Shown here in pieces: positions 13,567 through 37,428 of a stretch of DNA of 64,000 nt; within the stretch, counting starts at the first letter, position 1; each line of letters opens with the position of its first letter. The translations under genes were made by a program, and so were the position numbers. Below the pieces are notes generated by a model. The model searched no databases. It was given only the letters and a program-made list of their open reading frames with translations, and was not told the origin of the DNA. The DNA is taken from contig NZ_KE159568.1 in assembly GCF_000403845.2 (NCBI RefSeq), positions 497,725 through 561,724 on the forward strand, written 5' to 3'. Origin of the DNA: Eubacterium sp. 14-2 (GTDB lineage: Bacteria > Bacillota > Clostridia > Lachnospirales > Lachnospiraceae).

Positions 13567-13643
13567 ATGAATAACCCCGGCTGTATTCATTTACAACCGG
13601 GGATTCTATATATTTTTCTTCCTGTATCGGCTTACCCCAAATG

Positions 13644-15307: not shown

Positions 15308-15383
15308 TGTTGTATCATTTTAGTTGACATCTTATACTCAAGGATTTGATGTATAGTTAAAGAGAAATAAGGAGGCAACTGCA

Positions 15384-16496: not shown

Positions 16497-16544
16497 ATCT
16501 CCGGGGATTGCAGCTTAGGCATTCATATCCTTGTAAAAAAAGTG

Positions 16545-16664: not shown

Positions 16665-16820
16665 AGCTTGTCCTCCATTTTGAAATACTTGGGAGCTACA
16701 CTCCCAAACCCTTGTGGATTCGTGCTGCCAGTTACCCAAAATGCGGCTAACTGGCAACCCGAATTAGCTTTCCATGCCAACATATCTGTGCTATACTTTT
16801 TGTAGCGCTACTTGTCTTAA

Positions 16821-16901
16821 TTTCAGGTATAGAAAACCTGCTGAAATGAAAATGGACTAAGCAGAACCCCCTGTTTTTCAAGGTTTTTCTAACTTAGTCC
16901 A
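16821..16901. repeat. Inverted repeats at the right end of the ICE-like region
   Basis: TGGACTAAG (16853-16861) and CTTAGTCCA (16893-16901) pair exactly; TTTCAG/CTGAAA flank 16821-16846. They lie within 15-90 bp of the point (about 16,911) where subtilase coding sequence begins, as expected for an element terminus or integrase arm sites. Which element owns them is unknown. Confidence 0.5.
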
Positions 16902-18115: not shown

Positions 18116-18311
18116 CTCTTGTGTCAAATAGTTGCAGAAAAATTTTTTACTTCTTCATTTCGAAACTTCCCCGTTTTAGCGGTTCGCCTGGCGGACAATC
18201 ACCTTTTTGCATACCTTCTGTCAGCTAATTGCCACAAAATCCCATCCGCCATGTTAAACCATTGCAAAACAGACTATTTGGATGAAGAATAGCGGTTTTG
18301 CATTCTTCCAG

Positions 18312-18345
18312 TGTGAGAAAGGTTTGCATGTAAACCCTTCTCACA
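18312..18345 (-). terminator. Terminator of the recombinase operon
   Basis: TGTGAGAA (18312-18319) pairs with TTCTCACA (18338-18345), with additional GGTTT/AAACC pairing. The hairpin overlaps the stop codon of the last recombinase. The T-tract is poor, so termination is tentative. Confidence 0.5.
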
Positions 18346-19750
18346 TTTTCCACCTGATTTCTATTTCTTCTTCATTAAAAACCACTATACTGTCAATATA
18401 CCTCTCCATTACCTCTGTCTGCCCTCCCTGAGAATATAACCGGCAACTCTCACAGTGCTGCTTCTTCAACCTGTCATGCTCCCATTCCGCCTGTCTCAAA
18501 TCCAGCAGCAGTTCGTCACGTTTTCCTGCCAAATCATCCTTAACCTTTTGGGAAACTTCTGCGGTAAGGTTCTGCCCTTTCAGATATTCCTCCAGCCGAA
18601 ACAAAACTACCTGCTCCAAAAACATGGCATTCACTTTGCCGACACATGCCCCCAATCCGGTCACATACCGGTTATGACAGGTAAAATAGGGATTAAGCCC
18701 CTCCTTTATACTCAGGTTGCGTCTGCAGCATCCACACACTGCCCTGCCAATCAACGGATGCCTGCTTCTCCGTTCTTTTTTGCAGCTTTTCCTCCTGCTT
18801 TCCTGGACTTTCTCAAAATCTTCCCTGGCAATGATGGGGGCATGGTGGTTTCCTGTCACCTTCCACTCTGCCCTTGTCTTCAGGACATTGCGGCCTCCCA
18901 CCTGTTCCCTCTCTGTCTTGCCATACACCGCATCCCCGGCATATACCGGATTCCGTAAGATACTGCATATCGTACTGCTGCTCCAGTAAAACTTATCCCC
19001 CTTTGGCTTGCGGGAAGTTGTGCCTTTCCTGATCTTAAACTCCACCGGAGCAGGAACCTTTTCCAAATTTAATTTCTTTGCTGTCTGAGAAGACGTCATC
19101 CCCTGCAGGGCAAGGGAAAAAATCTCCCGCACCACCGCCGCTTCCTCCTCGCAGATAACAAGCATATGCCTGTCATCCGGGGCTTTTTCATAGCCAAACG
19201 GGGCATTGGCGCTAACATACAGTCCGCTTTCCTTTCTTGCCCGCAGCGAAGTCTTCACTTTCTGCGATAAATCCCTGCTGTACAGGTCATAGAGCAGATT
19301 TTTGAAATTCACATCCAAATCGGCGGCATTTCCCTGCACACTGCCGCTGTCGTAATGGTCGTTAATGGAAATAAAGCGGATTCCCAAAAAGGGAAATATC
19401 TGCTCCAGATAAGAGCCCACTTCCATATAATCCCTGCCAAAGCGGGACAAATCTTTTACCACCACGCAATCAAACTTTTCATTTCTGGCATCCTCCAAAA
19501 GACGCTGCACCCCCGGGCGGTTGAAATTCGTCCCCGAAAATCCGTCATCCTGGTATTCCATAACCTCACATTCTGTAAAACGGGATGCTATATACTTCCT
19601 TATCAGAATACGCTGCATGGAAATACTGTTACTTTCCTCCCGCATGGTTTCATCTGTTTTGGAAAGGCGCATATAGATGGCAATGCGGATTGCATGTGTT
19701 ACAGCCTTTTCCTTATCCGTCTGTCTGATTCCTTCCCTCTTTTTACTCAT
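18341..19750 (-). CDS. Large serine recombinase 1
   Basis: About 469 residues. Resolvase domain with catalytic Ser in IAIYMRLSKTDE and active-site region VVVKDLSRFGRDYMEVG; recombinase domain (FGYEKAPDD, WSSSTICSILRNPVYAGDAVYG); Cys-rich zinc ribbon (CGCCRRNL and YFTCHNRYVTGLGAC); C-terminal coiled coil. ATG 19750 overlaps the stop of recombinase 2 by 8 bp. It is the shortest of the three and the closest to the element end. Catalyses site-specific DNA exchange; which of the three performs integration cannot be told. Confidence 0.93.
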   Translation of the reverse strand: MSKKREGIRQTDKEKAVTHAIRIAIYMRLSKTDETMREESNSISMQRILIRKYIASRFTECEVMEYQDDGFSGTNFNRPGVQRLLEDARNEKFDCVVVKDLSRFGRDYMEVGSYLEQIFPFLGIRFISINDHYDSGSVQGNAADLDVNFKNLLYDLYSRDLSQKVKTSLRARKESGLYVSANAPFGYEKAPDDRHMLVICEEEAAVVREIFSLALQGMTSSQTAKKLNLEKVPAPVEFKIRKGTTSRKPKGDKFYWSSSTICSILRNPVYAGDAVYGKTEREQVGGRNVLKTRAEWKVTGNHHAPIIAREDFEKVQESRRKSCKKERRSRHPLIGRAVCGCCRRNLSIKEGLNPYFTCHNRYVTGLGACVGKVNAMFLEQVVLFRLEEYLKGQNLTAEVSQKVKDDLAGKRDELLLDLRQAEWEHDRLKKQHCESCRLYSQGGQTEVMERYIDSIVVFNEEEIEIRWKM

Positions 19751-21476
19751 GCTGTACGCCCTCTTTCCCCGATTTGCCATTTTCATCAGCATATAATAAT
19801 TCATTCATACAAAAAGCAAACGTGATTTTTACCCGATGACCGGTAAACACATCAATCCGGCGGACCAGCGTATGTATGATATCCTTTGTCAGCTTCGTCT
19901 TTTCATTACATTTCATTAAGTTACGCAGGAACTTTCCTTTTTCCGCTATCTCACGCTCCATGGCGTCTAACCTGTGCTGCAGCTCCTCTTTCCTTCCTGC
20001 CATTTCACAGAGGCATCTATCCTGTTCCTTTTTCATCTGCTGAAATTCCTCCAGTGACAGGCTGCCCTCATGGTATTTCAGATACAGTTCGCTCCCCCTC
20101 TTTTTCCCGTATTCCTGCTGTTTCCCACAGGAAACAATTTCCTGCCTGATTTTTTCTTTTTGTTCCTCTGCCTGCCTTTCATACTCCTTTACCAGCCTGC
20201 CCGGACGCAGATCTGAAAGGGCAAACTCCTGATGCAGCGCTGTTTTTACCAGTCCATCCAATACACTCATACCAATACTCCTGGAAGGGCACTGCAAATC
20301 ATCCATTCTGCGGGAAGACGGGCAGTAATACCCATAATACCGTACCCTATGGCCGGAACTGAACTCTTTTGCATTTGCCACCCTTGCCATTCGCTTTCCA
20401 CAGTCCCCGCAGAACAGCACCCCAGCATAAATATCCTCCTTGGGAGGTGTCCTTTTAGAAAAACCGGCGCTATTACCATACTTTGCTGCCGACTTTTCAA
20501 ACATGGCAGCCACCTGGAAAAACACATCCTCACTGACAAGGGGCTCATGGCTTCCCCATTTCATGCTATAATCCCCGCTGTCCACATCATGGCGGTTCCT
20601 GATTTTATACTGTTTCCCACAGGTTATCCCCTGCACCAGACAGCCCATATAGACCGGGTTTGTCAGAATGAGTCTGACTGTCGCAGCACTCCATTGCTCT
20701 AAAACCTCCCCCTCCTGCCGGTACACATGCCCCGTCTTTTTATAAATCCCCGGCCTGTGTATCCCCCTTTCATACAGTTTCCCGGCAATCTGCCCCATAT
20801 TTTTACCGGATAAATACATCCCATAAATATCCCTGACAATCCCTGACGTCTCCGGACAGGCCAAAAGGCATTTCTTCCCATCCATCCATTCCGCCCGGTA
20901 ACCATAAGGCGGGACGCCCCCGGTATAACTCCCCTGTTCCTGACGGCTGCGCTTGCCGGACTTTATCTTTTCGGCAATATCCCTGGCATACATTTCATTC
21001 AGAAGGTTTTTAAGGTTCAGCGCCATTTCATCCGCATCGGATTTTTCCGCGAATGTATCAATCCCATCTGCAAGGGCAATAAAGCGGACGCCCATAAAAG
21101 GAAAAATCTTCTGGATATAATTCCCCGCTTCTATATGATTCCTGCCGAAACGGGATAAATCCTTGACAATCACACAGTCAATGCATTTCTTTCGCACATC
21201 CTGCATCATGCGCTCAAAGCCTTCCCGCCTGAAATTGGTTCCAGTCCTGCCCAGATCCGTATAACAGTCATAAAGTTCCATTTCCGGGTGTTCCTTCAGG
21301 TACTGCTTTGCCATTGTAACCTGCGTATTAATGGACTCATTCTTCCGGGCCTGCAGAGCTTCCTCCTGTCCGCAATCCTTTGACCCATCAACAGAAAGCC
21401 TTGCATAAACCCCCACATGGAAACGCCTGGAAAGAGGAACCGGCCCTGTCTTTTTCCTTTTTGAAATCCGTGGCAT
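19743..21476 (-). CDS. Large serine recombinase 2
   Basis: 577 residues: catalytic Ser in VGVYARLSVDGSK, CVIVKDLSRFGRNHIEAG, recombinase domain (WSAATVRLILTNPVYMGCLVQG), zinc ribbon (FCGDCGKRMARV and YYCPSSRRMDDLQC) and a long charged coiled coil before the C-terminus. Middle gene of the recombinase operon, 21 bp after recombinase 3. All active-site elements are intact. Confidence 0.93.
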   Translation of the reverse strand: MPRISKRKKTGPVPLSRRFHVGVYARLSVDGSKDCGQEEALQARKNESINTQVTMAKQYLKEHPEMELYDCYTDLGRTGTNFRREGFERMMQDVRKKCIDCVIVKDLSRFGRNHIEAGNYIQKIFPFMGVRFIALADGIDTFAEKSDADEMALNLKNLLNEMYARDIAEKIKSGKRSRQEQGSYTGGVPPYGYRAEWMDGKKCLLACPETSGIVRDIYGMYLSGKNMGQIAGKLYERGIHRPGIYKKTGHVYRQEGEVLEQWSAATVRLILTNPVYMGCLVQGITCGKQYKIRNRHDVDSGDYSMKWGSHEPLVSEDVFFQVAAMFEKSAAKYGNSAGFSKRTPPKEDIYAGVLFCGDCGKRMARVANAKEFSSGHRVRYYGYYCPSSRRMDDLQCPSRSIGMSVLDGLVKTALHQEFALSDLRPGRLVKEYERQAEEQKEKIRQEIVSCGKQQEYGKKRGSELYLKYHEGSLSLEEFQQMKKEQDRCLCEMAGRKEELQHRLDAMEREIAEKGKFLRNLMKCNEKTKLTKDIIHTLVRRIDVFTGHRVKITFAFCMNELLYADENGKSGKEGVQHE

Positions 21477-21497
21477 ACTGCGATACCTCCATTCTCT

Positions 21498-23165
21498 TTA
21501 TTCACAATCATAATCTGCCAGCATCAGAACCTTTGCAAACATGTCTTTTACCCGGAGTTCCAAAAATACCCGTTTATCCTCATACACAAGAATGCGGCTC
21601 ACAAATGTCACAAGAATATCCCGGCTTAATTCCGTAATCTCCAAAGTGGATTTCATCTTTTCCAGATTTGCCCCTGCAGACACCCCTGCCTTAAATAATA
21701 CCTTTAATGCCTCCTCCTGCTGCCCTATGGCAGCCTCCGCCGCCTGATACTGTGTTTCATAAATCTGCCGGAAATTCCGGAAATCTTCCTCCGTGATGAT
21801 TCCCTGTTTCAAATCCTCATACAGCCCGCTGCGCAGGGAGACATACTTTTCCTGTTCCTGATAAAGTTTCCGAATTTCTTTATCAAAAGCCGCCACCTCA
21901 TCAAAAGGCACTTCCATTGTTTCAATCCGGGCCAGCACATGACTCTTATCCAAAAACAGTGCGAGCTGCTGCTTAAGTCCTGTCAGAACAAGACGCTTCA
22001 GTTCCTCCTCCGGGATGCTATGCCTTGTGCAGCCAAGTCCCCTGTTTCTGGTAGGACAGATAAAATAAACCTTTGACCTTCCCTTATAACGGTTTACCCG
22101 CCGTATCATCGGCTCCCCGCAGTCCCCACAGCAGAGAAATCCTGCAAACATATGGCACCCTGCTTTCCCGGCAGAAGACCTTGTATCTACTGCAAGCAGT
22201 TTCTGTACCATTTCAAAATCCTCTGCTGATACCACCGCCTCATGGGTATCCGGTACGCGCACCCATTCCTCCTTTGGCTTTTCTACCGAGCGTTTCACTT
22301 TGTGGCTGACCTTTTCGTTTTTTCCCTGCACCATCATTCCCGTGTACAGTTCATTCGTTAAGATCCGCCTGACTGCCACCGCCGACCATTTCGCTTTTAC
22401 ATGGGTAACAAACCCGGTAGAGAATTTCTCCCCCTGCGACTTCTTATATTCCATCGGGGAAAGGATTCCCATCCCGTTGAGTTTTTCCGCTATGGCAAGG
22501 CTGCTTAAGCCTGCGATTTTCCATGCAAATATCTTCTTTACAATACTGGCGGCATATTTATCCACAAGCAGTTGGTTAATATTCTCCGGATCCTTACGGT
22601 AGCCATACACGGCAAAAGCGCCAATAAAATCCCCTTTTTCCCTCCTGGCCTGTTGATGGCTCCTGACCTTTTTGGAAATATCACTGCAATACGCATCATT
22701 GACAAAGTTTTTGACCGGAAGCACTAAAGCTCTCTCATTAAAATCCGCCGTCAGCGAATCAAAATTATCGTTCAGTGCTATAAAGCGCACAGAAAAAGCC
22801 GGGAAGGTTTTCTGAATCAACCGCCCGGCTTCAATATAATCCCGTCCAAATCTGGATAAATCCTTTACTATCACACAGTCAACGCGTCCAGCCTCAATAT
22901 CTTCCATCATCCGCTTAAAAGACGGCCTGTCAAAATTTGCCCCCGACCATCCATCATCCACGTAGATATCATAAATCTCCATGTCGTCCTGCTTTCGGAT
23001 ATAGGAACGTATCATATCCCTTTGGGAACGGATGCTGTTGCTTTCCACTCTCGCGCCCCATGGCATAGAGGTATGCCCAAAGGGCGCCTCTGTGCTGCCA
23101 TCCGATTCATCATCCCGGCTCAGGCGGAGATAAACTGCCACGTTATAAAAATCTTTTGCTTTCAC
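21498..23165 (-). CDS. Large serine recombinase 3
   Basis: 555 residues: catalytic Ser in VAVYLRLSRDDE, CVIVKDLSRFGRDYIEAG, recombinase domain (WSAVAVRRILTNELYTGMMVQG), zinc ribbon (CCGDCGEPM and YFICPTRNRGLGC), and a coiled coil (FDKEIRKLYQEQEKYVSL). First recombinase of the operon. The three proteins share the same layout but are clearly divergent, so this is not a recent triplication. Confidence 0.93.
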   Translation of the reverse strand: MKAKDFYNVAVYLRLSRDDESDGSTEAPFGHTSMPWGARVESNSIRSQRDMIRSYIRKQDDMEIYDIYVDDGWSGANFDRPSFKRMMEDIEAGRVDCVIVKDLSRFGRDYIEAGRLIQKTFPAFSVRFIALNDNFDSLTADFNERALVLPVKNFVNDAYCSDISKKVRSHQQARREKGDFIGAFAVYGYRKDPENINQLLVDKYAASIVKKIFAWKIAGLSSLAIAEKLNGMGILSPMEYKKSQGEKFSTGFVTHVKAKWSAVAVRRILTNELYTGMMVQGKNEKVSHKVKRSVEKPKEEWVRVPDTHEAVVSAEDFEMVQKLLAVDTRSSAGKAGCHMFAGFLCCGDCGEPMIRRVNRYKGRSKVYFICPTRNRGLGCTRHSIPEEELKRLVLTGLKQQLALFLDKSHVLARIETMEVPFDEVAAFDKEIRKLYQEQEKYVSLRSGLYEDLKQGIITEEDFRNFRQIYETQYQAAEAAIGQQEEALKVLFKAGVSAGANLEKMKSTLEITELSRDILVTFVSRILVYEDKRVFLELRVKDMFAKVLMLADYDCE

Positions 23166-23192
23166 TCTGTATTCCTCCTGATTTATGATTCG

Positions 23193-23450
23193 TCAGCTGA
23201 TGGCAGTCTGCTTTCTGACAAGCTGCACCATGCGGTCATCCAATGTTTCCTGCGCGTCTTTCACATATCCAATCTGTAATATATATTCCCCTACATTCTG
23301 CGCAAATGGATTCTTCATCTGCCTGAAAAAGGACTGTACCCGCTGGTTCAGACTTTTTGAGGTATCTATTACCACCTCATCTGCGTCCGACAGTTCTTCC
23401 CGCCTAAGTTCCATGATAGGAATTTTCTGTAATTCAGATAACTGTTCCAT
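23193..23450 (-). CDS. Small DUF6870-like protein heading the recombinase operon
   Basis: About 85 residues (MEQLSELQKIPIMELRREEL, VIDTSKSLNQRVQSFFRQMKNPFAQ), resembling DUF6870 proteins found before recombinases in clostridial elements. It ends 27 bp before recombinase 3. In-frame starts 5' of 23450 exist and the AAAGGAG site fits either. It may be an accessory or directionality factor; no evidence in the sequence decides. Confidence 0.6.
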   Translation of the reverse strand: MEQLSELQKIPIMELRREELSDADEVVIDTSKSLNQRVQSFFRQMKNPFAQNVGEYILQIGYVKDAQETLDDRMVQLVRKQTAIS

Positions 23451-23642
23451 TGTCACTGAAGCGCCACTCCTTTCCATTTCCCATAAGATGCCAGGGCAAA
23501 ACCATTTTGCCCTGATATCATTTTATTAGGATAGCCGCCTGTCTTATGACCAGTCTCTGCCATGGTTGTGTAAAACCAAAAATGAGAAAAAATAACCGGC
23601 TAAGGAAATTCAGAACTTTTGAAACCCTGATTCTATGATTCA

Positions 23643-23677
23643 AAAAGTGCCTGAAGATGTTATTCTTCAGACACTTT
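23643..23677 (-). terminator. Terminator of the NRPS operon
   Basis: AAGTGCCTGAAGA and TCTTCAGACACTT can pair around TGTTAT, with A-rich DNA on the left giving a T-run on the minus strand. It lies between the second STAS gene (stop at 23809) and the recombinase operon. The remaining bases of 23478-23808 hold no gene. Confidence 0.6.
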
Positions 23678-23808
23678 AAAAACAGAAAACTATATTACTT
23701 TGCTGTAATTTCTGATACTGATATAACCACTGTTACTTTCGTCTATGGAAACTTCTTTTTTATCCAAAGAATATTTTCAATCCGGTCAGAAAATATCAGC
23801 AGAAACCA

Positions 23809-24105
23809 TCACTCAATTGTCAGAATATCAGCAAATCCTGTAATATCAAATATATCCATCACGCCCTCATTTGCATTTCTTATTACCATGCTGCCCTGCT
23901 TATTCATTATTTTCTGCGTTGAAAGCAGTATCCTTAATCCTGCCGATGATATATATTCCAATGATGCAAAGTCTAAAAACAGCTTATCTATGCCTTCAAT
24001 ACTATCTCTCAGCTCTGACTCCAGCTGAGGCGCCGTCATCGTATCAAGCCTTCCCTCCAGCACAAGCGTCAATGATGTCCCATCCGTTGTCTTAGTAATA
24101 ATCAT
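23809..24105 (-). CDS. STAS-domain protein 2 (anti-sigma-factor antagonist type)
   Basis: 98 residues spanning a complete STAS fold: LTLVLEGRLDTMTAPQLESEL, LFLDFASLEYISSAGLRIL, VMDIFDITGF. The Ser in SSAGLR is the SpoIIAA/RsbV phosphorylation position. Its kinase partner is probably the HATPase domain fused to the MATE protein two genes upstream in the operon. Last gene of the operon. Confidence 0.9.
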   Translation of the reverse strand: MIITKTTDGTSLTLVLEGRLDTMTAPQLESELRDSIEGIDKLFLDFASLEYISSAGLRILLSTQKIMNKQGSMVIRNANEGVMDIFDITGFADILTIE

Positions 24106-24117
24106 AATGTTTTCCTC

Positions 24118-24420
24118 CTATTTTGTCTGTATATCAAAATTCTGGTCAAATCCAGTCAGCTTAAATACATCCATCACTTCGCTGCTTACATGGATAACAG
24201 AAAACGTTCCATTTATACTTTTCAGTTTCTTATATGCTAACAGAACGATACGAAGCCCCGCCGATGCAATATATTCCAGTTTATCAAAATCAAGTATCAG
24301 GCTCTCTATATCAGAAAGCGCCTCAATTTCCCTGCCCAGCTCTGGCGCTGAATTTGTGTCCAGCCATCCCTCGACCGAGAGAATGGCTTTGTTATTTTCC
24401 ATTGTTTTTGTAATCGTCAC
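24118..24420 (-). CDS. STAS-domain protein 1 (anti-sigma-factor antagonist type)
   Basis: 100 residues: AILSVEGWLDTNSAPELGREI, LILDFDKLEYIASAGLRIV, VMDVFKLTGFDQNF. The phosphorylatable Ser is preserved. The GTG start at 24420 has an excellent GGAGGAG site; an ATG at 24447 does not. It lies 42 bp after the NRPS stop and 12 bp before STAS 2. Two different STAS proteins beside one HATPase suggest distinct outputs or a competition switch. Confidence 0.9.
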   Translation of the reverse strand: MTITKTMENNKAILSVEGWLDTNSAPELGREIEALSDIESLILDFDKLEYIASAGLRIVLLAYKKLKSINGTFSVIHVSSEVMDVFKLTGFDQNFDIQTK

Positions 24421-24462
24421 TTTGTCTCCTCCATATAAAATCAGCATAAAATTTTCGTAGTA

Positions 24463-30400: not shown

Positions 30401-33400
30401 TCTGTCTCATTAAAACTGTCAAGGATTTTTTCCTGCTGCTCTGAAAGGATTGTCACATCGGATACATTGCGGCAGCCGAATATGGATTTGAAAGCGGCAT
30501 TGTAAGAATCCATAATATTCTGAACCGTTTCCTCCTGATACAAATCACTGCGGTACTCAGCTGTCAGATAATACTCCCCGTCATAGAGACGAACCTGGAG
30601 CAACAGCGGCTCTTTGGGCAGGTCAAGGGACAAATCCTCACCAACAGCAACGGTATTTCCCATCGGATAATCGTCTGTAAGTTCTGCCTGATATGCAAAA
30701 ATCAGATCAGAAGTAATCCCATATTTTGCAGCAATATCGGAAAACGGGAAAATATCATTTGCCATGGAATTCATTAACTGTTCCTGTAAGGAAACCATAT
30801 AGGATACCACCGTTGTCTTATCATCAAATTTACAATATACAGGAAGCGTTTTTACAAGCATGCATACCGTATTTTCAAGCCTCGAATCATTCCTGCCATT
30901 ATAGATGGTCGCAAATAACGATTCCTTTGCATTTGACCAGCGGGACATCAGGATTCCAAAAACTCCGGTAAAGAGTGTATTCGGCGTAATTCCCAGTCTT
31001 TCACAGAGCTTAAAGGCCTCTTCTTCTGAAACTGACATTTTATATTCTGCCAGCCCTTTCCTGGGCGTATCTTCTTTTTTGTCAAAAATCGGAAGCGACT
31101 CGACTTCAAGCCCCTGAAAAATATTGTCATAATAAAGAGCTGCCTTTTTATAACCGCCTCTCTCCACTGCGTATTCCTCTGAAACAGCCGCATCAAAACC
31201 TGTATAGTCTTCCTCTGCCAGTTCTTCACCCATATAGGCGCGGTTCAAGTCCCTGAAAAAAATATCATAGGAATTTCCATCCGCCATGATGTGGTGAAAA
31301 TCTACAAACAGATATTTCTTCGTCTCAGTCAGGTAGATTGTAATCCGAAACAGCCTGCCCCCTTCTAATTGAAATGGCTTCACAAGACTGTTCTTCTGAA
31401 ACTCACTGTCTGTTGTTCTTATAATCTCAGGCACAAAATCTTCTGAAAAGGGTTTTTGAACCATTTCTCCCTCTTCACTGATCCCAAAACGCGCCGTCAT
31501 ATAGGAATGTGCCCGAATGGTTCTGGCAACTGCACTGGCAAGTTTCTCTTCCTCAATACTGTTGTCAAGGGTAAATAAAAACGGTATATTATAAATCGTT
31601 GTTTCCGGATTCTTCGCACACTCCGCAAAAATCCCTTTCTGGGAACCCGTTAAAGGATAAACGCCGCGGATTTCCCTTTCATCAGGTGCTTCTGCATTCC
31701 TGATAAATTCCTCCATAAGCGCCACCGTATTATACTGGATGATATCGCTGGTCTTTATCGCTATGCCGAATCCCTCTGCCAGCAGGACATTTAATTTCAT
31801 TGCCCCCAGAGAAGTAAGCCCTGCACGGTAAAATGACGTGTTTATGCCAAAGTTGCTGTTATTGGTAACGGATGCTGCGATATCAAAAATCTTTTGTTGC
31901 ATCTTATTTTTAGGCACCTCATGATCGCCCTGCTTCAACACCGGTTTCGGCAGGGATTTTTTGTCTATTTTCTGATTTGCCGTCAGCGGCATTTCCTCAA
32001 GCTGAATCAGGATATCTGGCACCATATAGTAAGCAAGGCTCTCTGCGGCAAAATCAGAAAGTTCCTGCGGCCCGATTTCTTTTGCGGCGGTATAGTATAC
32101 ACAAAGCTGCTCATCAATAACTACCGCTGCTGCATTCAACACATCTGCATGGCTTAGAATCACTTCCTCAACCTCACCCAGCTCAATCCGAAGGCCTCTG
32201 AGTTTTACCTGATTATCCTTTCTTCCATGAAATTCAATCTCCCCCTCAGAGTTAATCAGGGCAAGGTCTCCTGACTTGTAACCACGCATACCATGATACT
32301 CAATAAATACCTCTGCCGTCTTTTCAGGAAGGTTCCGATATCCACGTCCCACACCCTTTCCGCAGATGAGAAGCTCGCCAACCTGCCCATCCGGCACTTC
32401 TTTATTATTCTCATCAATAATATATACCAGCACATTGGCATTCGGTATGCCAATGGTGATATTCTCACTATTCGTAATCACCTTCATAGTACAGCTGATC
32501 GTTGTCTCTGTAGGCCCATATCCGTTCATGATATATGCTTCCGGATTGATTTCACATATTTTGTCATACAATCCTCCCTGAAATGCTTCAGCGCCTAAAT
32601 CGTAGGAGCGAACCTGCTTTAATGCCTCCCGCATTTTCGGAATTTCCAGCATAACAGAAAGAAAAGATGGCGTTGTCGTTATATTATCAACGCCATGCTG
32701 CAGAATGGTGTCCGCAAGCAAATCCAGATTATGTATTTCCTCCTCTGTTGCAATAACAACTGTCATGCCATTTGTGAGAGGAATAAACTCTTCCATAATT
32801 GAAACGTCAAATGTCATTGCCGCAAGCGCAAGAACAACCGATGATTTTTCTGTAAATCCAAGGGTTTCATGGTTCTTTGGGTTTGCATTTACGAAATTTG
32901 ACAGATTCCCCTGTTCAATCATAACGCCCTTAGGCTTTCCTGTAGAACCTGACGTATAAATAACATAGCATAAGTCTTTTTCATGAATTTCCCGATTGGG
33001 ATTTTGCGTATTTTCACCTTTCAAAATCTCGTCGATGATAAGAGGCGTACACTCTGATGTCTCCCACAAATCCCTGAACTGATTCCTGGTCTTTTCATCT
33101 GTAATAATCCACTTTGCGCCACTATCCTCTAATATATAACGCACACGCTCCCTGGGATATTCGGCAGAAATACAGGTAAATGCCCCGCCTGCCTTTAATA
33201 TTCCCTGTGTCGCAGTATAAACTTTTACGCCGCGTTCCAAAAGGACAGCTACCATCGTTTCTGCCTCTGCCCCATTTTTAATCAGAACATCTGCCACCCT
33301 GTTTGCATCAGCATTCAGCTCACCATACGTTTTCTTCTCGCTGCCTGAAATGACTGCCGTTTTGTCCGGATGCATTTCTACCTGTTTCTCAAACATACTT

Positions 33401-33450
33401 ACTACCGATACAAAATCAGTTTCATAAATCGTGTCGTTAATTTTTTTCAC
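24463..33450 (-). CDS. Three-module NRPS with C-terminal thioester reductase
   Basis: 2,995 residues, order A-T-C-A-T-C-A-T-R. A1 about 15-500 (YTSGSTGKPKG at 165, NGYGPTETT); T1 Ser about 544 (AGLTSLGAMK); C1 HHIMADG about 717; A2 about 1030-1500 (YTSGSTGVPKG, YNVYGPTEC); T2 Ser about 1551 (AGLTSISAIK); C2 HHLIADG about 1718; A3 about 2035-2500 (NGYGPTENT); T3 Ser about 2547 (GGTSLAASK); reductase from about 2625 with TGATGFLG and the Tyr-x3-Lys pair in NEYIRTKFLAE. All catalytic motifs are intact. There is no starter C domain, so the first residue keeps a free amine. Reductive release predicts a tripeptide aldehyde, or an alcohol or cyclic imine derived from it. By-eye pocket readings begin DVM, DAM and DAH; I could not assign substrates. 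GTG start overlaps the MATE stop. A phosphopantetheinyl transferase must come from elsewhere. Confidence 0.95.
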   Translation of the reverse strand: MKKINDTIYETDFVSVVSMFEKQVEMHPDKTAVISGSEKKTYGELNADANRVADVLIKNGAEAETMVAVLLERGVKVYTATQGILKAGGAFTCISAEYPRERVRYILEDSGAKWIITDEKTRNQFRDLWETSECTPLIIDEILKGENTQNPNREIHEKDLCYVIYTSGSTGKPKGVMIEQGNLSNFVNANPKNHETLGFTEKSSVVLALAAMTFDVSIMEEFIPLTNGMTVVIATEEEIHNLDLLADTILQHGVDNITTTPSFLSVMLEIPKMREALKQVRSYDLGAEAFQGGLYDKICEINPEAYIMNGYGPTETTISCTMKVITNSENITIGIPNANVLVYIIDENNKEVPDGQVGELLICGKGVGRGYRNLPEKTAEVFIEYHGMRGYKSGDLALINSEGEIEFHGRKDNQVKLRGLRIELGEVEEVILSHADVLNAAAVVIDEQLCVYYTAAKEIGPQELSDFAAESLAYYMVPDILIQLEEMPLTANQKIDKKSLPKPVLKQGDHEVPKNKMQQKIFDIAASVTNNSNFGINTSFYRAGLTSLGAMKLNVLLAEGFGIAIKTSDIIQYNTVALMEEFIRNAEAPDEREIRGVYPLTGSQKGIFAECAKNPETTIYNIPFLFTLDNSIEEEKLASAVARTIRAHSYMTARFGISEEGEMVQKPFSEDFVPEIIRTTDSEFQKNSLVKPFQLEGGRLFRITIYLTETKKYLFVDFHHIMADGNSYDIFFRDLNRAYMGEELAEEDYTGFDAAVSEEYAVERGGYKKAALYYDNIFQGLEVESLPIFDKKEDTPRKGLAEYKMSVSEEEAFKLCERLGITPNTLFTGVFGILMSRWSNAKESLFATIYNGRNDSRLENTVCMLVKTLPVYCKFDDKTTVVSYMVSLQEQLMNSMANDIFPFSDIAAKYGITSDLIFAYQAELTDDYPMGNTVAVGEDLSLDLPKEPLLLQVRLYDGEYYLTAEYRSDLYQEETVQNIMDSYNAAFKSIFGCRNVSDVTILSEQQEKILDSFNETEVSYDDSKTVVDMFEAAAVKYPANTAVVYEDVRYTYSEVEKITRNLAGDLIRRGLTAGDVAAVLIPRCEYMAICSMGVARSGCACQPLDHTYPQDRLLFMLEDSGAKLLITTQKMRELVSGYTGQILYLDEIPDLPEYVEKLPSPKPEDLFTLLYTSGSTGVPKGCMLEYGNITAFCTWYHRQYQFDSSARLAAYASYGFDASMMDIFTSLTAGAQLNIIAEEIRLDLLALCDYFEENQLTHSFMTTQVGRQFAMEIKSKTLRHLSTGGEKLVPLNPPEGIRFYNVYGPTECTVYTTIFEMDRYYDDIPIGKPLDNLKLYIVDDKGHRLPAGASGELLVSGRQVSRGYLNRPEKTKEVYAENPYTDQEGYGRMYRTGDVVRYLNDGNISFVGRRDAQVKIRGFRIELTEVEEVIRRFPGIKDATVAAFDEEGGGKYIAAYVVSDEQIDTGKLNAFIMETKPPYMVPAVTMQIDRIPLNQNQKVNRRALPKPQKAVEEMIPPKNEMQQRICDCIAEAIGHREFGITTDIQLAGLTSISAIKLNVLLAKKFDVAIRTNDIRENPTVVQLERFLLGAEKFEIHEVREVYPLTNTQAGIFVDCTANMGTTVYNIPYLFRLSHRIDLIRLKEAVEQTVEAHPYLKVQIFMDEDGEIRQRRNDHLEYAAEIIDGMDREKLVRPFPLFHEPLFRFEIHRTHEGSYLFLDVHHLIADGTSLSVILSDIDRAYQGEELTTEVYTAYDAALDNERAVQGEKYKKAEEFYAAVLKDCSSDTSLYPDKNGEAPGVGNLCRKSHVISREAVQAVCEKYGITENVFFTGVFGAALARYHFAPKSVFTTIYHGRNDSRLSDTVGMFVKTLPVVCDTTKNTEDYFVTIKNQLMGMMDHDIYPFQEISRNFHIKPDTMFVYQGGNFAFTKICGEDAEEIPLGLNAAKEPISLMMSIENGAYIYELEYRSDLFEKETAEYLIENLEITTRAFLDGKEPSEIRLLFDEQDKMVNTPQYTGKTFIDLFREAVSKYPDNTAVKDENGTITYAELDAVSEYIADKLKNNGFGRENVAGILCGRTREFVEAFVGIMKAGGAYVPLDPEYPQERIEYMLSDSGSENLLLMRKYQPLTEGYDKNVIYLDEIEKDGLGFTEKTDLTPPLPENLAYMIYTSGSTGKPKGVMLEHRNLMTLIEHTVTFHKTVPEDMYGEFSSFCFDASVHDLFMPLAVGASLYIFPESVRKDAVAVCRIFENEPITVATMPTQMGELVAETLTGDCALRILTLGGEKFKRYYDRKYMMVNGYGPTENTVSSTEFVVDKEYKTIPIGKSQLNVRSYIVDENLKRVPVGAPGELCVAGRQVARGYHNLPEKTASVFVPNPFATCKDEERLYHTGDMVRMKGDGNIEYIGRIDSQIKINGFRVEPGEIEGALLKRDGVCEAAAIPVDQSGVTYIAVYYTGAEYKEEDWKAFLSPLLPEYMVPAFYTHLDKMPVTLGGKIDKHALPKPAIMEERTNYAAPQTGAQIKLCKLFEKALGREKVGIDDDFFAIGGTSLAASKVAVMCLNEKIPLVYADIFKYPTVRALARALYGDEVQKENTDEFANYSYNAIDTLIAANNRQNADCAEKKELGDILITGATGFLGIHVLKEFLDNYDGKAYCMVRKGRYESGERRLMNMLMYYFDLPYTELFGGRIICIDSDITDRKEVDRLKDVPFTTLINCAACVKHFAAGEMLEKINVTGVRYLIDLCSSANRRLIQISTISVGGEGMDGTPPMERIFAENDLYFGQRIANEYIRTKFLAERAVLEAAAKGLDAKVIRVGNLMSRHRDGEFQINFITNGFLRSLRGYAAVGAFPMDSMNESAEFSPIDETAAAVLCLAGTDSRFTVFHACNNHRIFMSDVIYEMRERGFDIKIMPGDQFIETVNAYAAEHETSDAVSGLIAYTSHDDEELYTIDYDNAFTTEVLYRLGFKWNITDNRYLANAMKALEGLNFFEDESSDTL

Positions 33451-35213
33451 CTTTCTTCCTCCTGTTCTATGTCAAATTCTAACACGGTATTATTCAAATC
33501 CATTGTACGCATATAACTGATGCCGGATGAGATTGTTTTCACAAGCTCAATCCCATGTATATCAAATTTCCTGCTGTCAAATTCATACTCAGTTGGATTA
33601 AAAGGCACTCCATTGTCCCTGATTCTAAGAAGCATCTTTTGCTTTTCTATCACCAGGCTGACGTCAATCCAATGAGACAGCCTGCCGCCATATCTGATAC
33701 AATTTACGATCATTTCCTCCGCAGCCACCGCCACGATATTGGCTTTATTAGCGCTTATGCCATGATCCAGGCAGAACTTTTTTACCTCTCTGGGTACCAG
33801 CGCAGTCTCGTCCATATCCGCCTTCACGGTAAAATCAAAACATATTCCCGTTTCCTCAGGAAGCAGATAAAAATCCGTACCTTTATACCTGATTTTGCGG
33901 TAAATATATGCCGTAAGAACTGTCAGGATTTCCGAACATACAAAACTAAACGCCAGACCATTTATACCGCTGCCGCCCATTTTTACTTCCAGAATGATCC
34001 CAAAAGCTGCAGCGGGCAGCACGTAAATGCCATTTTGAAAGAATGTAATAATACTTGCCTGTTTTGACTCTTCAATGGATTCATAATAACCCACAAGAAA
34101 TTTATTCCATACATATGCCGGCAGGCACAAAATAAAAATCCTGAGCGCTGTCCCCATCATGGAGGAAAGAGCTGAATCATCCACGCCAAACATAACGGTA
34201 ACCGGCTCTGCAAGCGCCATAACAAGCCCAAAAATAAACAGCGTTGCAACCGCGCTTAATACAAGAACCCTTTTGCACAGCGCGCGGATACCAAAGTAAT
34301 CCTTTTCCCCATAAAGAATTCCCGCTATATTTGGTATTACGCCTATGATTCCGGCCGTAATCATTTCCACAATCATAAGGACATTGTCGCATACCGTATA
34401 AACTGCCATCCCGCCTTCTCCAATAAAACGGATAATAATTTCATTCAGCCCAAAGGATTTTATTATGGTCATAATCATAAATACAAAAACCGGCGCCCCT
34501 GATATGACCGCTTCTTTCAGAGGAGCAAATGATTTGATTCTGACAAAGCCTATCATGCGCTTCGGGGAACGGATATAAAAGATAAAAACAACCATTCCAA
34601 GTAAAAACCCGGCCACCGTAGACAGGGCGGCGCCCGCAATGCCAATATGAGTGAATTTTAATAATATGTAATCAAGAATCAGATTGATAACATTAGAAAT
34701 AATCAGATAGGCAGACGCAAGCCCAGGATGGTTTTCCACACCCAAAAAACTGGACATCAGAAGCCCGACGCCAATAATCGGAGCGCCAAGCATCCCTACA
34801 AAAAGATAATGGCCTGCAGGAATACTCAGATTTCCGCCCTTTGCCAGAGCGTCTGCAATGGGCATTGCCAAAAAAGGCGCCGCTGCAGCAATGATAAGTC
34901 CCACAACAACAGTTATCAATAATGTGAGCGAAAACAGCTGTGATGCTCCCTCTTTATTTCGCCTGCCAAGCAAAATGCCTGCTGCAATCGATCCTCCCAT
35001 ACCAAGACAATAGCCTGTTACCTGTATTAAAGTTTCCATGGGAAGAACAAGAGTTATTGCCGACATTGCCTCCGTCCCCAAAAAGTTCCCCACAAATACT
35101 GTATCAACGATGTTCCCCAGCTGCAGAGCCAGCGACATCATAATTCCCGGTAAAAGATACTTCCAAATTTTATTCTCTATAAGCCTTTCATTCCTCTGGT
35201 GCATCTGCTCCAT
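33447..35213 (-). CDS. MATE-family exporter fused to an RsbW-like HATPase domain
   Basis: 588 residues. About 1-440 form a 12-helix MATE transporter (NKIWKYLLPGIMMSLALQLG, DTVFVGNFLGTEAMSA, VENHPGLASAYLI). About 460-588 form an HATPase_c_2 domain: N-box VAVAAEEMIVNCIRYGG, G1 LRIRDNGVPFNP, G2 GIELVKTISSGISY. The latter is the anti-sigma kinase fold of RsbW/SpoIIAB. ATG 35213 follows AGGAGG; frame upstream of it is open but lacks a good start. Likely exports the NRPS product, with the ATPase domain acting on the two STAS proteins. Confidence 0.92.
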   Translation of the reverse strand: MEQMHQRNERLIENKIWKYLLPGIMMSLALQLGNIVDTVFVGNFLGTEAMSAITLVLPMETLIQVTGYCLGMGGSIAAGILLGRRNKEGASQLFSLTLLITVVVGLIIAAAAPFLAMPIADALAKGGNLSIPAGHYLFVGMLGAPIIGVGLLMSSFLGVENHPGLASAYLIISNVINLILDYILLKFTHIGIAGAALSTVAGFLLGMVVFIFYIRSPKRMIGFVRIKSFAPLKEAVISGAPVFVFMIMTIIKSFGLNEIIIRFIGEGGMAVYTVCDNVLMIVEMITAGIIGVIPNIAGILYGEKDYFGIRALCKRVLVLSAVATLFIFGLVMALAEPVTVMFGVDDSALSSMMGTALRIFILCLPAYVWNKFLVGYYESIEESKQASIITFFQNGIYVLPAAAFGIILEVKMGGSGINGLAFSFVCSEILTVLTAYIYRKIRYKGTDFYLLPEETGICFDFTVKADMDETALVPREVKKFCLDHGISANKANIVAVAAEEMIVNCIRYGGRLSHWIDVSLVIEKQKMLLRIRDNGVPFNPTEYEFDSRKFDIHGIELVKTISSGISYMRTMDLNNTVLEFDIEQEEER

Positions 35214-35257
35214 CTCAATATCCTCCTGCCATACTTTTGCCTGCACAAATATATTTG

Positions 35258-36376
35258 CTATGCTGCAACCTTTGCCTGCAGCATATTGTATCCTCTTACT
35301 ATAATTTCTGTCACCAGGATTGAAACCAATGCAAGAAGCCAGCATTGATAACTTTGAAAGCTCTCATAACCATTGATTCCGAGAGCAACAAAATATACAA
35401 TGATATGCAGCGCATAATATTTTGATATATGTTCGCTATAATATAGAATCTGCTTTGCAACAGGATTCTCTGGCTCACGCAGTTTGCCATCCTTTCTGCA
35501 GATACTTTCCATAAAGAAAAATACGATAGCCAAAATAAATATGTGCGCCATGCCTGCCGCCACGTGCCAAAGGTTCGGCTGTGAATACGCATCAAGTAAC
35601 GCAATATACATTTGGGATATATTCGAACCATATTCCCTGAACACCAATACCCACCATACAATAATGACCACGATGCCGGGAACAGCCAGCATGCCGTAAA
35701 ATTTGTTTTTATCCTTCACATGCCGAAGGATTTTGCCAAAGGCAACTCCAAACATGGCATAGGACAGAAAATAGAGCGGCGTAAAGGAAACAAACTCTGC
35801 CTCTCCAATCAACAGTTTCATAATATACCCAAGCACTGGCACATCTACCGGCTTTCCATAAAGGAACGGCGCAATGATACTCATGGCCGCACCGATTATC
35901 ACGTACCCTGCAATGTTCATATTCAGCTTCTTTAACAATGCCAATACAAAATAAATAATTCCGGTAATAAAAAAGATATTGATGTATTGAATGTATACCT
36001 CTGTCAGATATTTAAAATTATCCCTCCCGGTCCCCGTCAGGTTCCCGGAAACGAAGGGATAGGGAATTAGCAGAGCAATTACATAGACAAGGTTATTCAG
36101 ATACTGATAAACCACCATGCGAACACCGCTCTTTGCCATTCCCACCGGCGTTGCATTCCTGCTGTAAACAGTTCCGATTCCCATAACGAAAATAAAAATA
36201 GCTGCGCCGGACATTGTTGCAAACATAAAAATCCACCGGGTAACGGAATCTTCCGGGGACATGGTTGCCTGAAAGGCGTGGACCAGGTAAATAAACAGCA
36301 TAAAAATCCCTTTCAAATAATCAAATTCCCTCTGCCTTCCGGTATTTGTCTCTTCATGTGAAAATATAGCATTCAT
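35258..36376 (-). CDS. Multi-pass membrane acyltransferase-like protein
   Basis: 372 residues with about ten membrane helices. The N-terminus REFDYLKGIFMLFIYLVHAFQ is the typical start of acyltransferase-3/DUF1624-like proteins with His in the first helix, and a late YYALHIIVYF helix also fits. First gene of the NRPS operon, 44 bp before the MATE start. It could acylate the peptide's free amine or a cell-surface target; neither is shown. Ribosome site GAGGA before ATG 36376. Confidence 0.75.
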   Translation of the reverse strand: MNAIFSHEETNTGRQREFDYLKGIFMLFIYLVHAFQATMSPEDSVTRWIFMFATMSGAAIFIFVMGIGTVYSRNATPVGMAKSGVRMVVYQYLNNLVYVIALLIPYPFVSGNLTGTGRDNFKYLTEVYIQYINIFFITGIIYFVLALLKKLNMNIAGYVIIGAAMSIIAPFLYGKPVDVPVLGYIMKLLIGEAEFVSFTPLYFLSYAMFGVAFGKILRHVKDKNKFYGMLAVPGIVVIIVWWVLVFREYGSNISQMYIALLDAYSQPNLWHVAAGMAHIFILAIVFFFMESICRKDGKLREPENPVAKQILYYSEHISKYYALHIIVYFVALGINGYESFQSYQCWLLALVSILVTEIIVRGYNMLQAKVAA

Positions 36377-36411
36377 TTTTTCATCCTCTCTGAAAATAAC
36401 GATTTGAAAAA

Positions 36412-36439
36412 ATTATATCAAATACGCAGAGGACAACAA
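36412..36439 (-). promoter_or_regulatory. Predicted promoter of the NRPS operon
   Basis: On the minus strand TTGTTG (36434-36439), 16 bp, TATAAT (36412-36417), about 35 bp ahead of the first gene. This is a housekeeping-type promoter reading into all five cargo genes. No second strong promoter was seen inside the operon. Confidence 0.6.
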
Positions 36440-36583
36440 CCCATTTGGGATTAAAGGGCATTTTTTAGGGAACAAATTACACTTTTTTATGTGAAAACTG
36501 CCAAACCCACGGTATATTTCAGTTTGCGGAATGATGTCCCGGTACCCCGCCAGGAAAAGTACAGGATTTATCCAGATTAAAAA

Positions 36584-36740
36584 ATAAAAAAGAATGCGCC
36601 ATGCGCATTCTCCGCCTGCGGCGGGTCGCTTTAGCGACATATTTCTTTTTCACCGCGGTGCGATAATTATTTTCTCTTATAGGAAATCCAACGGAATTTC
36701 CTATAAGAGAAAATAAACCTCCCACTTCTCAGCAGGAGGT
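36584..36740. repeat. Complex palindromic repeat, copy A
   Basis: Contains GAATGCGCCATGCGCATTC, the palindrome GTCGCTTTAGCGAC and a 19-bp stem (ATTTTCTCTTATAGGAAAT at 36669 with its complement at 36696-36714), then ACCTCC/GGAGGT. Shares the GTCGCTTTAGCGAC core and the TCTTATAGGAA stem with 49150-49271. An ORF-like stretch on the minus strand here is not convincing. Confidence 0.7.
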
Positions 36741-36982
36741 CTTTGTTTCTTATTTTATCTTACCACATCCGGAGCATTCGCAGTAATATTCTTCCTGACC
36801 CCGTCTGTTTCCCTGACCTGTCTTCGTGTCAAATAAATGCAGGAAACCGTTTTCGATTATTGAAACAGGCCCATACTACGTCAGGATTACTATTTATTTT
36901 AGATTTTCTGCAGGACTAAATCAGCTGAAAACCCCAATATTTACCGGGTTCTTACTGACTTGACAATATTATAACACGCTCC

Positions 36983-36984
36983 CC
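36983..36984. other. Right attachment core of the NRPS element
   Basis: GG on the minus strand immediately after codons for Leu-Asp-Ser of the subtilase; element sequence GGAGCGTGTTATAATA follows. Pairing with 18114-18115 restores Asp-Ser-Gly-Ile-Asp-Tyr in frame. Confidence 0.75.
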
Positions 36985-37380
36985 GGAATCCAGCACTGCC
37001 ACAATCACGCCCTTTCCTGTAAGGTTATACCGGGCCCCCTGTACGGGAGTGATACAGGCTGCCTGTTTTGCAGCCTGCACCGCAAAATACATCCGTTTCG
37101 GCTTTTCCACATATTCCACTTCTGATGCCGATGCCACCTGCTCCATGGCACTCTCCGGCACGTACAGAATAGCATACTCATTCATCAGCTCCACCACCTC
37201 TATCTGAGGATTCTCCTGTGCAAGCCTCATAATGTTTCCGGAGTATTTTACAATCAGCTCCCATCTTTCCGCCTCTGGCTCATACCCTACGCCAAGCTGC
37301 AGAGATTTTTCCCGCTCCCGGCCGGTGGCGTCCAGGGCAAGGTTCAGGAGGTTTTCAAATTTCTCACTGTTTGCCGCCAT
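36985..37380 (-). pseudogene. Csp-like subtilisin-family protease, N-terminal part
   Basis: About 132 residues: helical N-terminal region (KFENLLNLALDATGRERE, WELIVKYSGNIMRLAQENP), a propeptide-like strand segment (EYAILYVPESAMEQVA), then GKGVIVAVLDSG with the catalytic Asp. In the present arrangement the frame runs 7 codons into the element and stops. With the part at 16889-18115 it would form a protein of about 540 residues, still lacking its native C-terminus. Start ATG 37380 (AGGA site); an in-frame ATG lies at 37404. Confidence 0.85.
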
Positions 37381-37428
37381 GGTTATTTCCTGTCTGTTCT
37401 GCATTTCTGTTATTATATGTAATGTCTT

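What the first reader, a model, noticed from the sequence alone, without database searches (positions are those of the whole stretch)
18116..36982. NRPS operon carried by a serine-recombinase element inserted exactly at a protease active-site codon
Seen: the two halves of a Csp-like subtilase flank an 18.9-kb segment; joining at the shared GG gives Leu-Asp-Ser-Gly-Ile-Asp-Tyr in frame. The recombinases lie at one end and the biosynthetic cargo at the other. Inference: the element uses the conserved catalytic Asp-Ser-Gly DNA as its attachment site, and excision would rebuild this part of the protease gene, as for developmental excision elements in other spore formers. A horizontally moving NRPS of this type, with its own recombinases and no conjugation genes, would be an undescribed vehicle.
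Basis: partly seen in the sequence, partly recalled or inferred. Interest (0 to 1): 0.88.

Follow-up and report, generated by a model that had tools for sequence, protein, structure and literature searches.

The report
Mobile peptide-synthetase element splitting a protease gene
A gut bacterium carries what looks like a movable DNA cassette, with three cut-and-join enzymes of its own and a peptide-making enzyme as cargo, inserted exactly in the codon next to a protease's active-site residue; sister cassettes with other cargo use the same spot in other species.

Summary
A CspB-type subtilase gene is split at Asp-Ser|Gly by an 18,867-bp element (18116-36982) whose ends share only GG. Of 29 congeneric genomes 20 are continuous across this codon, 7 are split there, 2 lack the gene. 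The inference of a site-specific mobile element is well supported: related elements with large serine recombinases, most with three, and different cargo sit at the same DSG/DTG glycine codon of divergent subtilases. Bacterium D16-36, whose Csp homologue is only 47% identical, carries the same NRPS cassette (cargo DNA 92-94% identical) in another subtilase. New here: (i) the protease is split twice, by a second triplet element of about 54.6 kb (window 1-16914 is its cargo); removing both in silico gives a gap-free 571-aa frame; (ii) joining the ends of either element makes TTGACA-N17-TATAAT, a promoter split by integration; (iii) a DUF6870 protein accompanies the recombinases; (iv) a sister clade targets a glycine beside the conserved histidines of NodB-like deacetylases. 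Excision, promoter activity and developmental control are unproven. Serine-integrase triplets and NRPS-bearing serine-recombinase elements are published, so this is a new variant of a known kind.

The parts
36983..37404 (-). N-terminal part of a CspB-type subtilase (prodomain, up to Asp-Ser-Gly); the ORF runs on into the element to 36952
   Evidence: Pfam CspB_prodomain E 9.3e-34; junction
18116..36982 (-). element 1: 18,867-bp triplet-serine-recombinase cassette carrying the NRPS operon
   Evidence: empty site in relatives; ends conserved in sister elements
36956..36996 (-). attL: host GATTCC, core GG, element arm GGAGCGTGTTATAATATTGTCAAG (holds -10 TATAAT)
18090..18127 (-). attR: element arm TTGACACAAGAG (holds -35 TTGACA), core GG, host AATTGATTAC
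36715..36742 (-). terminator-like hairpin 240 bases inside attL, followed by a long hairpin of about 22 pairs
   Evidence: scan; fold of 36660-36760 z -9.1
36589..36613 (-). terminator-like hairpin with T tract between attL and the cargo operon
   Evidence: scan (21 such sites in the region against 16.3 +/- 5.0 in shuffles, so the scan alone is no proof); fold of 36570-36640 z -3.3
35258..36376 (-). 372-aa first cargo gene, membrane-protein-like by eye, no family match (91% identical in D16-36)
33447..35345 (-). MATE exporter fused to a histidine-kinase-like ATPase domain (HATPase_c_2)
   Evidence: Pfam
24463..33450 (-). 2995-aa NRPS, A-T-C-A-T-C-A-T-R, AusA-like; predicted tripeptide aldehyde
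   Evidence: Pfam: 3 A, 2 C, 3 T, NAD_binding_4 reductase; NCBIfam AusA 1533 bits, below its 2500 cut-off
24118..24447 (-). STAS-domain protein 1 (109 aa); with the next one and the exporter's HATPase domain a possible partner-switching regulator
   Evidence: Pfam STAS E 4.6e-13
23809..24105 (-). STAS-domain protein 2 (98 aa)
   Evidence: Pfam STAS E 4.8e-15
23193..23477 (-). DUF6870 small protein directly upstream of the recombinases; candidate directionality or regulatory factor
   Evidence: Pfam PF21757 E 2.8e-20; homologues upstream of recC in 33 of 42 locus rows
21498..23165 (-). large serine recombinase 1 (called recC here, 555 aa)
   Evidence: Pfam Resolvase + Recombinase + Zn ribbon; catalytic Ser kept
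19743..21476 (-). large serine recombinase 2 (called recB here, 577 aa)
18341..19804 (-). large serine recombinase 3 (called recA here, 487 aa)
16915..18115 (-). middle part of the subtilase (Gly-Ile-Asp-Tyr to ...NDPYLY)
   Evidence: 88.6% DNA identity to L031 over 1201 bases; Peptidase_S8
1..16914 (-). cargo end of element 2, about 54.6 kb in all (G000 C2:460075-514638), a second triplet element in the same protease gene; its recombinases and the protease's last 39 residues lie outside the window

Best explanation
This is a non-conjugative, site-specific mobile cassette. A recombination module (DUF6870 plus three large serine recombinases, all with catalytic serines) cuts attB at the GG of the glycine codon next to the catalytic Asp-Ser/Thr of subtilase genes and inserts a circle, leaving only GG shared between attL and attR. 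The cargo between attL and the module differs from element to element; here it is a three-module AusA-like NRPS with a MATE exporter and STAS proteins, predicted to make and export a tripeptide aldehyde. Excision would reform the gene exactly and, in the circle, bring TTGACA and TATAAT 17 bp apart, so that a sigma-70-type promoter exists only in the excised state. Shown by sequence: site, ends, triplet, catalytic serines, empty sites, cargo exchange, transfer between distant hosts, second insertion in the same gene. Inferred: that the recombinases are active, that the circle forms, that the junction promoter works, the role of DUF6870, and the product. How it moves between cells is unknown.
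For: Empty sites in 20 congeners, 7 of 29 split at the same codon. Of 36 named-genome loci found with recC, 22 show the broken end of an S8 gene at the DSG/DTG point, 7 that of a NodB-like gene, 7 are undetermined. attR pattern scan: 10 of 397 family genomes hit, 9 of the 10 are S8 genes cut at that glycine (own genome included, and one, L123, with the junction of L052). D16-36: cargo proteins 91-94% identical, in a different subtilase, while its Csp homologue is 47% identical to the window's. recC tree: S8-inserting clade 100/100, with Csp and paralog targets mixed within it. Catalytic Ser in 28 of 28 recA, 33 of 33 recB and 36 of 38 recC rows, the other 2 having gaps there. Junction hexamers 12 of 12 in this element; 9 or more in 7 of 12 S8-type junctions, 11 in NodB-type L063, 12 in element 2; in the window, both strands, no 17-bp-spaced pair scores 12 and one scores 11.
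Against: No circle junction was found in 61 genomes (up to 2 mismatches) or in IMG/VR (exact), so activity is not shown. Two terminator-like hairpins lie between attL and the cargo, so in this element the junction promoter may make only a short RNA. 5 of 12 S8-type junctions score only 4-8. The ends share ancestry, so the promoter counts are not independent, and the arms may be conserved as recombinase binding sites. Only 29 of 42 locus rows show all three recombinases as ORFs of 300 aa or more, some because contigs end. A related attL lies at another glycine codon (QW|G) of Csp in G014, so the site rule is not absolute. ORFs under about 90 aa in the element were not scanned for conjugation or phage functions.
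Confidence: 0.85

Rival explanations
1. Developmental excision: the two elements are skin-like intervening sequences, removed during sporulation or germination so that the CspB-type protease is made only in a terminal cell or in returning spores.
For: The target is a Csp-type protease (role in germination recalled); recombinases and gene have the same direction; all pieces stay open and the three-piece frame is 571 aa with no gap; dN/dS of split genes is 0.026-0.043 in the 5 measurable of 6 tested, like intact ones (0.028-0.053, one close pair 0.086, one not measurable). The yin element in yabG shows that elements in sporulation genes can excise in a growth-phase-dependent way (PMC10747680, passages).
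Against: Near relatives lack the element at this codon; recombinase relations do not follow the hosts; targets include many different subtilases and NodB-like deacetylases; terminator-like hairpins stand between Csp transcription and the cargo; recent insertion explains the low dN/dS equally well.
Confidence: 0.13
2. A dead genomic island: insertion was site-specific once, but the element is now immobile.
For: No circle seen. Recombinase-free relatives exist at the same site (L029; L088; the 70-kb flagellar island of G069).
Against: All three recombinases are open and keep catalytic serines; both ends keep an exact core; the NRPS cassette is 92-94% identical in cargo DNA in another host.
Confidence: 0.12
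3. The NRPS is an old resident operon of this lineage and only a small recombinase element inserted beside it.
For: AusA-like NRPS genes with no match to these recombinases nearby exist in other genera (G118, G219, 63-64%).
Against: All cargo lies between attL and the module and is absent at the continuous site of G028/G018; the best match to the exporter in the 60 relatives is 41%; D16-36 has the same module and order in another gene.
Confidence: 0.02

Closest known systems
Serine-integrase triplet modules of streptococcal ICEs (PMC4701971, passages read)
   Same: three adjacent serine integrases with Resolvase and Recombinase domains, same direction as the disrupted gene, very short direct repeats (2-8 bp there, GG and TATG here)
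   Different: those are conjugative elements in mutT, hsdM and traG; here no conjugation gene was found, targets are glycine codons of subtilase and NodB-like motifs, and DUF6870 and the junction promoter are added (I did not test whether the streptococcal elements have them)
Tn4451/Tn4453 and Tn5397 (TnpX/TndX)
   Same: large serine recombinase; two-base core (GA for Tn5397, passage in PMC3672683); promoter formed at the circle joint (Lyras and Rood 2000, only the title seen, in a reference list)
   Different: single recombinase, other core; mobilisable or conjugative (recalled)
SCC elements (CcrA, CcrB, CcrC)
   Same: non-conjugative serine-recombinase cassettes with exchangeable cargo at one chromosomal site (recalled)
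   Different: NCBIfam Ccr models match only far below cut-off; target rlmH (recalled), not a subtilase
skin, SP-beta/spsM and yin intervening elements
   Same: element splitting a sporulation-linked gene, excision rebuilds the gene
   Different: recombinase plus directionality factor, with excision observed (PMC10747680 passages); here neither is shown
ICESe2 equibactin and C. difficile 023_CTn1 (PMC3672683, PMC6814731, passages read)
   Same: NRPS cluster carried by a serine-recombinase mobile element
   Different: conjugative-type elements with a siderophore-type NRPS; no subtilase target mentioned in the passages seen
AusA (aureusimine) NRPS
   Same: A-T-first modules with a terminal reductase (AusA architecture recalled)
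   Different: three A, two C, three T here; below the AusA model cut-off

Membership tests
serine-integrase triplet mobile elements | three adjacent large serine recombinases, all with catalytic serine | tested here: met
serine-integrase triplet mobile elements | insertion inside a gene, short direct repeat, integrases in the direction of the target gene | tested here: met
   GG core
integrative conjugative or mobilisable element (ICE/IME) | relaxase or conjugation genes inside the element | tested here: not met
   element-1 ORFs given to Pfam: NRPS, MATE, two STAS, DUF6870, three recombinases, and ORFs without a match (the 372-aa protein and three opposite-strand ORFs); ORFs under about 90 aa and other overlapping ORFs were not scanned
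SCC (Ccr) elements | Ccr-family recombinases | tested here: not met
   CcrB 110, 97 and 90 bits against cut-off 900
developmental intervening element (skin type) | regulated excision during sporulation | not testable with these tools
   needs culture and PCR
developmental intervening element (skin type) | exact excision restores the reading frame | tested here: met
   in silico only: 571-aa frame after removing both elements
circle-joint promoter elements (Tn4451 type) | -35 and -10 on opposite ends, joined at promoter spacing | tested here: met
   sequence only: 12 of 12 with 17-bp spacer; activity not tested
AusA-type aureusimine synthetase | NCBIfam equivalog score above cut-off | tested here: not met
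   1533 of 2500 bits

The most novel reading that the evidence does not exclude
A spore-former's germination protease is kept in three pieces by two independent, reversible serine-recombinase cassettes. Each cassette turns on a junction promoter only when excised and rebuilds its part of the gene exactly, so the gene is a reversible switch whose inserted DNA is exchangeable cargo (peptide synthetase, sugar use, chemotaxis, signalling). The same enzyme family has evolved to read the DNA of conserved active-site motifs in different hydrolases.
Probability: 0.15. Interest if true: 0.9.

Novelty: new variant of a known kind. Interest (0 to 1): 0.72.

Why it matters
It points to a cassette system, seen here in dozens of mostly Lachnospiraceae loci, that uses the DNA of a catalytic motif as docking site, so that one type of enzyme set finds homes in many species and many paralogs. 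It shows one way by which a peptide-aldehyde-type NRPS, and in sister elements a sugar pathway, chemoreceptors or signalling genes, can spread without conjugation genes found on board. The recombinases are candidate tools with a GG core. The doubly split Csp gene makes the question of reversible gene interruption in spore formers testable with simple PCR.

Tried and rejected
Lost 3' end of the protease: I first read the missing last 39 residues as a deletion and noted it so (checkpoint notes). One search was a coordinate slip of mine: it queried mostly the C half.

Circle junction in databases: none in 61 genomes or IMG/VR. recC in viral contigs: 3 stretches matched a pattern, none was a relative. 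recC in plasmids: 460 records, all under 60% identity; in phages 626 records, all under 60%. Four short 'Bacteriophage sp.' scaffolds among these were fetched and not analysed further.

16S comparison of G000 and D16-36: no 16S match in either assembly, so the host distance rests on the Csp homologue (47%).

DUF6870: model pLDDT 74, one PDB match at E 2.5; its role stays open. Rfam: nothing over gathering score in the window.

dN/dS: searches had some intact genes on the wrong strand; one search is the corrected run. L029 and intact L016 could not be measured (synonymous sites saturated); G006 was left out for want of its N part.

Junctions: one search left out L060 because its Ser codon (AGC) missed my motif; scored (4 of 12).

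Tree: 12 of 36 rows had no target label; 13 of 33 inner branches are open. All four target labels together are more clustered than shuffles (9 changes against 12.0, as low in 1 of 200), which comes with the NodB clade; Csp alone is not (7 against 7.5) nor is S8 paralog (6 against 7.5, as low in 91 of 500).

Papers: ten searches. None listed a paper on serine-recombinase elements in subtilase or Csp genes, and 'DUF6870' gave no paper; most subscription journals are not in that library, so this is weak evidence of absence.
Full report
WHAT IS THERE. On the minus strand the window holds a CspB-type subtilase cut by 18,867 bp. The N part carries a CspB prodomain and the C part a Peptidase_S8 domain. 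The ends are GTGCTGGATTCC|GG|GGAGCGTG (attL) and CACAAGAG|GG|AATTGATTAC (attR); the frame closes as AVLDSGIDYSHPDF. From attL to attR, all in the direction of the protease, the element holds a 372-aa protein without family match, a MATE exporter with an HATPase domain, a 2995-aa NRPS with three A, two C, three T and a terminal reductase domain, two STAS-domain proteins, a 94-aa DUF6870 protein and three large serine recombinases. HATPase_c_2 and STAS domains are the parts of partner-switching regulators (recalled), so the exporter may be controlled that way (inference).

EMPTY AND OCCUPIED SITES. Of 29 genomes of the genus (own one included), 20 have the gene continuous across the DSG codon, 7 are split there, 2 have no orthologue. 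In five of the six other split genomes the recombinases are orthologous and in the same order (in G009 the recA ORF is only 315 aa); the sixth, G011 (L029), has no recombinase in its insert, whose two large ORFs I read as GGDEF/EAL-type signalling genes. G006 shows the C side only. Recombinase identity does not follow protease identity: against the window, G023 has protease 89% but recombinases 40-59%, while G017 has protease 85% and recombinases 71-88%. This fits separate arrivals.

THE TARGET RULE. A scan of named genomes with recC gave 36 loci. In 22 the element borders an S8 gene cut at the glycine after Asp-Ser or Asp-Thr: 18 seen on the C side, and 4 (L046, L057, L058, L073) on the N side only. 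Three of the 22 (L043, L048, L055) are the same loci as L027, L028 and L026 of the genus. Targets range from Csp orthologues to paralogs about 30% identical and to a smaller subtilase type (L049, L056; AprX-like by recall). Seven loci of a separate clade (recC about 40%) are in genes with NodB-type polysaccharide deacetylase motifs (family by my reading, not by a Pfam run), cut in the Gly codon before His-x-x-x-His, again at GG where both sides are held (L063). Seven loci are undetermined. In the recC tree the S8 clade and the NodB clade are each supported 100/100, and Csp and paralog targets are mixed within the S8 clade (the clustering counts are under Tried and rejected). An attR pattern scan of 397 family genomes hit 10; nine are S8 genes cut at this glycine (own genome included; L123 has the junction of L052) and one is an uninterrupted unrelated gene. 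An attL pattern scan of 61 relatives hit 8 genomes; it found a second insertion end in a DTG paralog of G009, an end at another glycine codon of Csp in G014, and some hits that look like chance.

CARGO AND MOVEMENT. Cargo between located attL and module, by Pfam: beta-galactosidase and sugar transporter (L025), chemoreceptor (L043), AraC regulator and GDSL/CBM protein (L048), S-layer protein (L058), dehydrogenase (L061); no ORF of 100 aa or more in L026. Upstream of the module where attL was not placed: radical SAM and ATP-grasp genes (L044), MATE-HATPase, GHKL and SpoIIE domains (L045). A recombinase-free 1.6-kb insert with the same ends lies in the Csp gene of G063, a genome that also has a triplet element. 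The NRPS element recurs in Bacterium D16-36 with the operon in the same order (protein identity 91, 91 and 93-94%; DNA 92-94% over the cargo, 82-88% over the module), in a different subtilase with a DTG motif. The Csp homologue of that host is 47% identical to the window's, against 77-96% for intact genes within the genus. This is best explained by horizontal transfer. Of 299 family genomes 14 (own included) hold an NRPS-end match at E 1e-120 or better; the two nearest besides the own genome (63-64%, G118 and G219) show no match to the recombinases in the 19-20 kb fetched. How the cassette crosses between cells is unknown. In G023 the DNA behind the Csp 3' end carries what I read as relaxase and MobC genes, a possible carrier.

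A GENE IN THREE PIECES. The protease lacks its last 39 residues at 16914. These lie at C2:459,956-460,073 of the same genome, directly behind another recombinase triplet (C2:460107-465247). So a second element of about 54.6 kb is inserted at Tyr|Gly near the 3' end with TATG shared, and window 1-16914 is part of its cargo (response regulators, histidine kinase, ABC transporter genes by Pfam; insertion sequences by eye). Removing both in a script gives 571 aa without stop or gap, 545 of 571 identical to the intact gene of G028. G023 has the same two sites occupied; its tail was not found within the contig fetched. The own genome has at least two more triplets.

THE JUNCTION PROMOTER. In a circle of element 1 the ends meet as TTGACA-CAAGAG-GG-GGAGCGTGT-TATAAT: both hexamers perfect, spacer 17. 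Element 2 gives TTGACA-GCACCA-TATG-CTGCTGT-TATAAT: again perfect, spacer 17, with another core. Twelve S8-type junctions at this fixed register score 12, 11, 11, 11, 10, 10, 9, 8, 8, 6, 6 and 4; the same register in attL, attR and attB of the first eleven scores at most 9, 8 and 6. NodB-type L063 scores 11. In both strands of the window no 17-bp-spaced pair scores 12 and one scores 11. That three element types with different surroundings keep the same spacing is the best sign that the promoter matters, though the ends are related and may be conserved for recombinase binding. Against it in this element: two terminator-like hairpins stand 240 and 369 bases inside attL, before the first cargo gene at 606, so the transcript may be short unless antiterminated. 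The scan itself found 21 terminator-like sites in the region against 16.3 +/- 5.0 in shuffles; the folds have z -9.1 and -3.3. A promoter at the joint is known for Tn4451/Tn4453 (title in a reference list).

DUF6870. A small protein just upstream of recC recurs in 33 of 42 locus rows, in both clades, three of the 33 being duplicates of others; six of six tested match Pfam DUF6870. No paper in the library names it. Its place makes it a candidate recombination directionality factor or regulator. This is inference.

WHAT IS NOT SHOWN. No circle was seen. Split Csp genes evolve as slowly as intact ones, which fits either recent insertion or regular restoration. Developmental excision is therefore open. 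Not every locus has three recombinases: 29 of 42 rows show all three as ORFs of 300 aa or more, and L063 has only two between its ends.

COMPARED WITH WHAT IS KNOWN. It works like, and by its module belongs with, the serine-integrase triplet elements described in streptococcal ICEs (PMC4701971, passages), but no conjugation gene was found and the target rule is new to me. As a non-conjugative cassette with exchangeable cargo it resembles SCC in form (recalled), but Ccr models do not reach cut-off. I call it a new variant of a known kind.

Noticed in passing
G069 C41:93555-164280 (L089, L090, L095-L097): A flagellar and chemotaxis gene cluster of about 70 kb lies between the two halves of a Csp-type gene at the same codon, with no match to the window's recombinases inside and worn ends (gene names by reading the sequences).
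   Followed up: partly
window 23809-24447 with 33447-35345: Two STAS-domain proteins behind the NRPS and an HATPase_c_2 domain fused to the MATE exporter: parts of a partner-switching regulator. L045 has a similar MATE-HATPase next to a SpoIIE-type gene.
   Followed up: partly
L088 (G063 C57): A 1.6-kb recombinase-free insert with the family's ends, carrying one hemerythrin/CheY-like gene (by eye), sits in Csp of a genome that also has a triplet element: a likely non-autonomous cassette.
   Followed up: partly
G000 C1:1131591-1136509 and C3:3714-8661 (L141, L142): Two further recombinase triplets in the same genome; their target genes were not determined.
   Followed up: partly
L113 (G014 C1:1030246): An element-1-type attL at the QW|G glycine codon near the 3' end of Csp: a third docking point in the same gene.
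   Followed up: partly
L121 (G009 C116:7318): G009 has a second insertion end at the DTG codon of a subtilase paralog besides the one in Csp.
   Followed up: no
window 36650-36860: A hairpin of about 22 pairs next to a second hairpin just inside attL (fold z -9); in the same leader an attR-like stretch TTATTTGACACGAAGACAGG and what reads like the C-terminal end of an older gene.
   Followed up: partly
window 37467-41188: The ABC transporter pair upstream of the Csp gene is absent at the same place in G028 and G018.
   Followed up: no
L030, L049, L050, L051, L053: PemK/MazF-like toxin genes lie near the recombinase module in one subgroup of elements (Pfam tested on L050 only).
   Followed up: no
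window 11013-12703 and 15082-16496: IS21-like and IS3-like transposase genes and fragments in the cargo of element 2 (names by reading).
   Followed up: no
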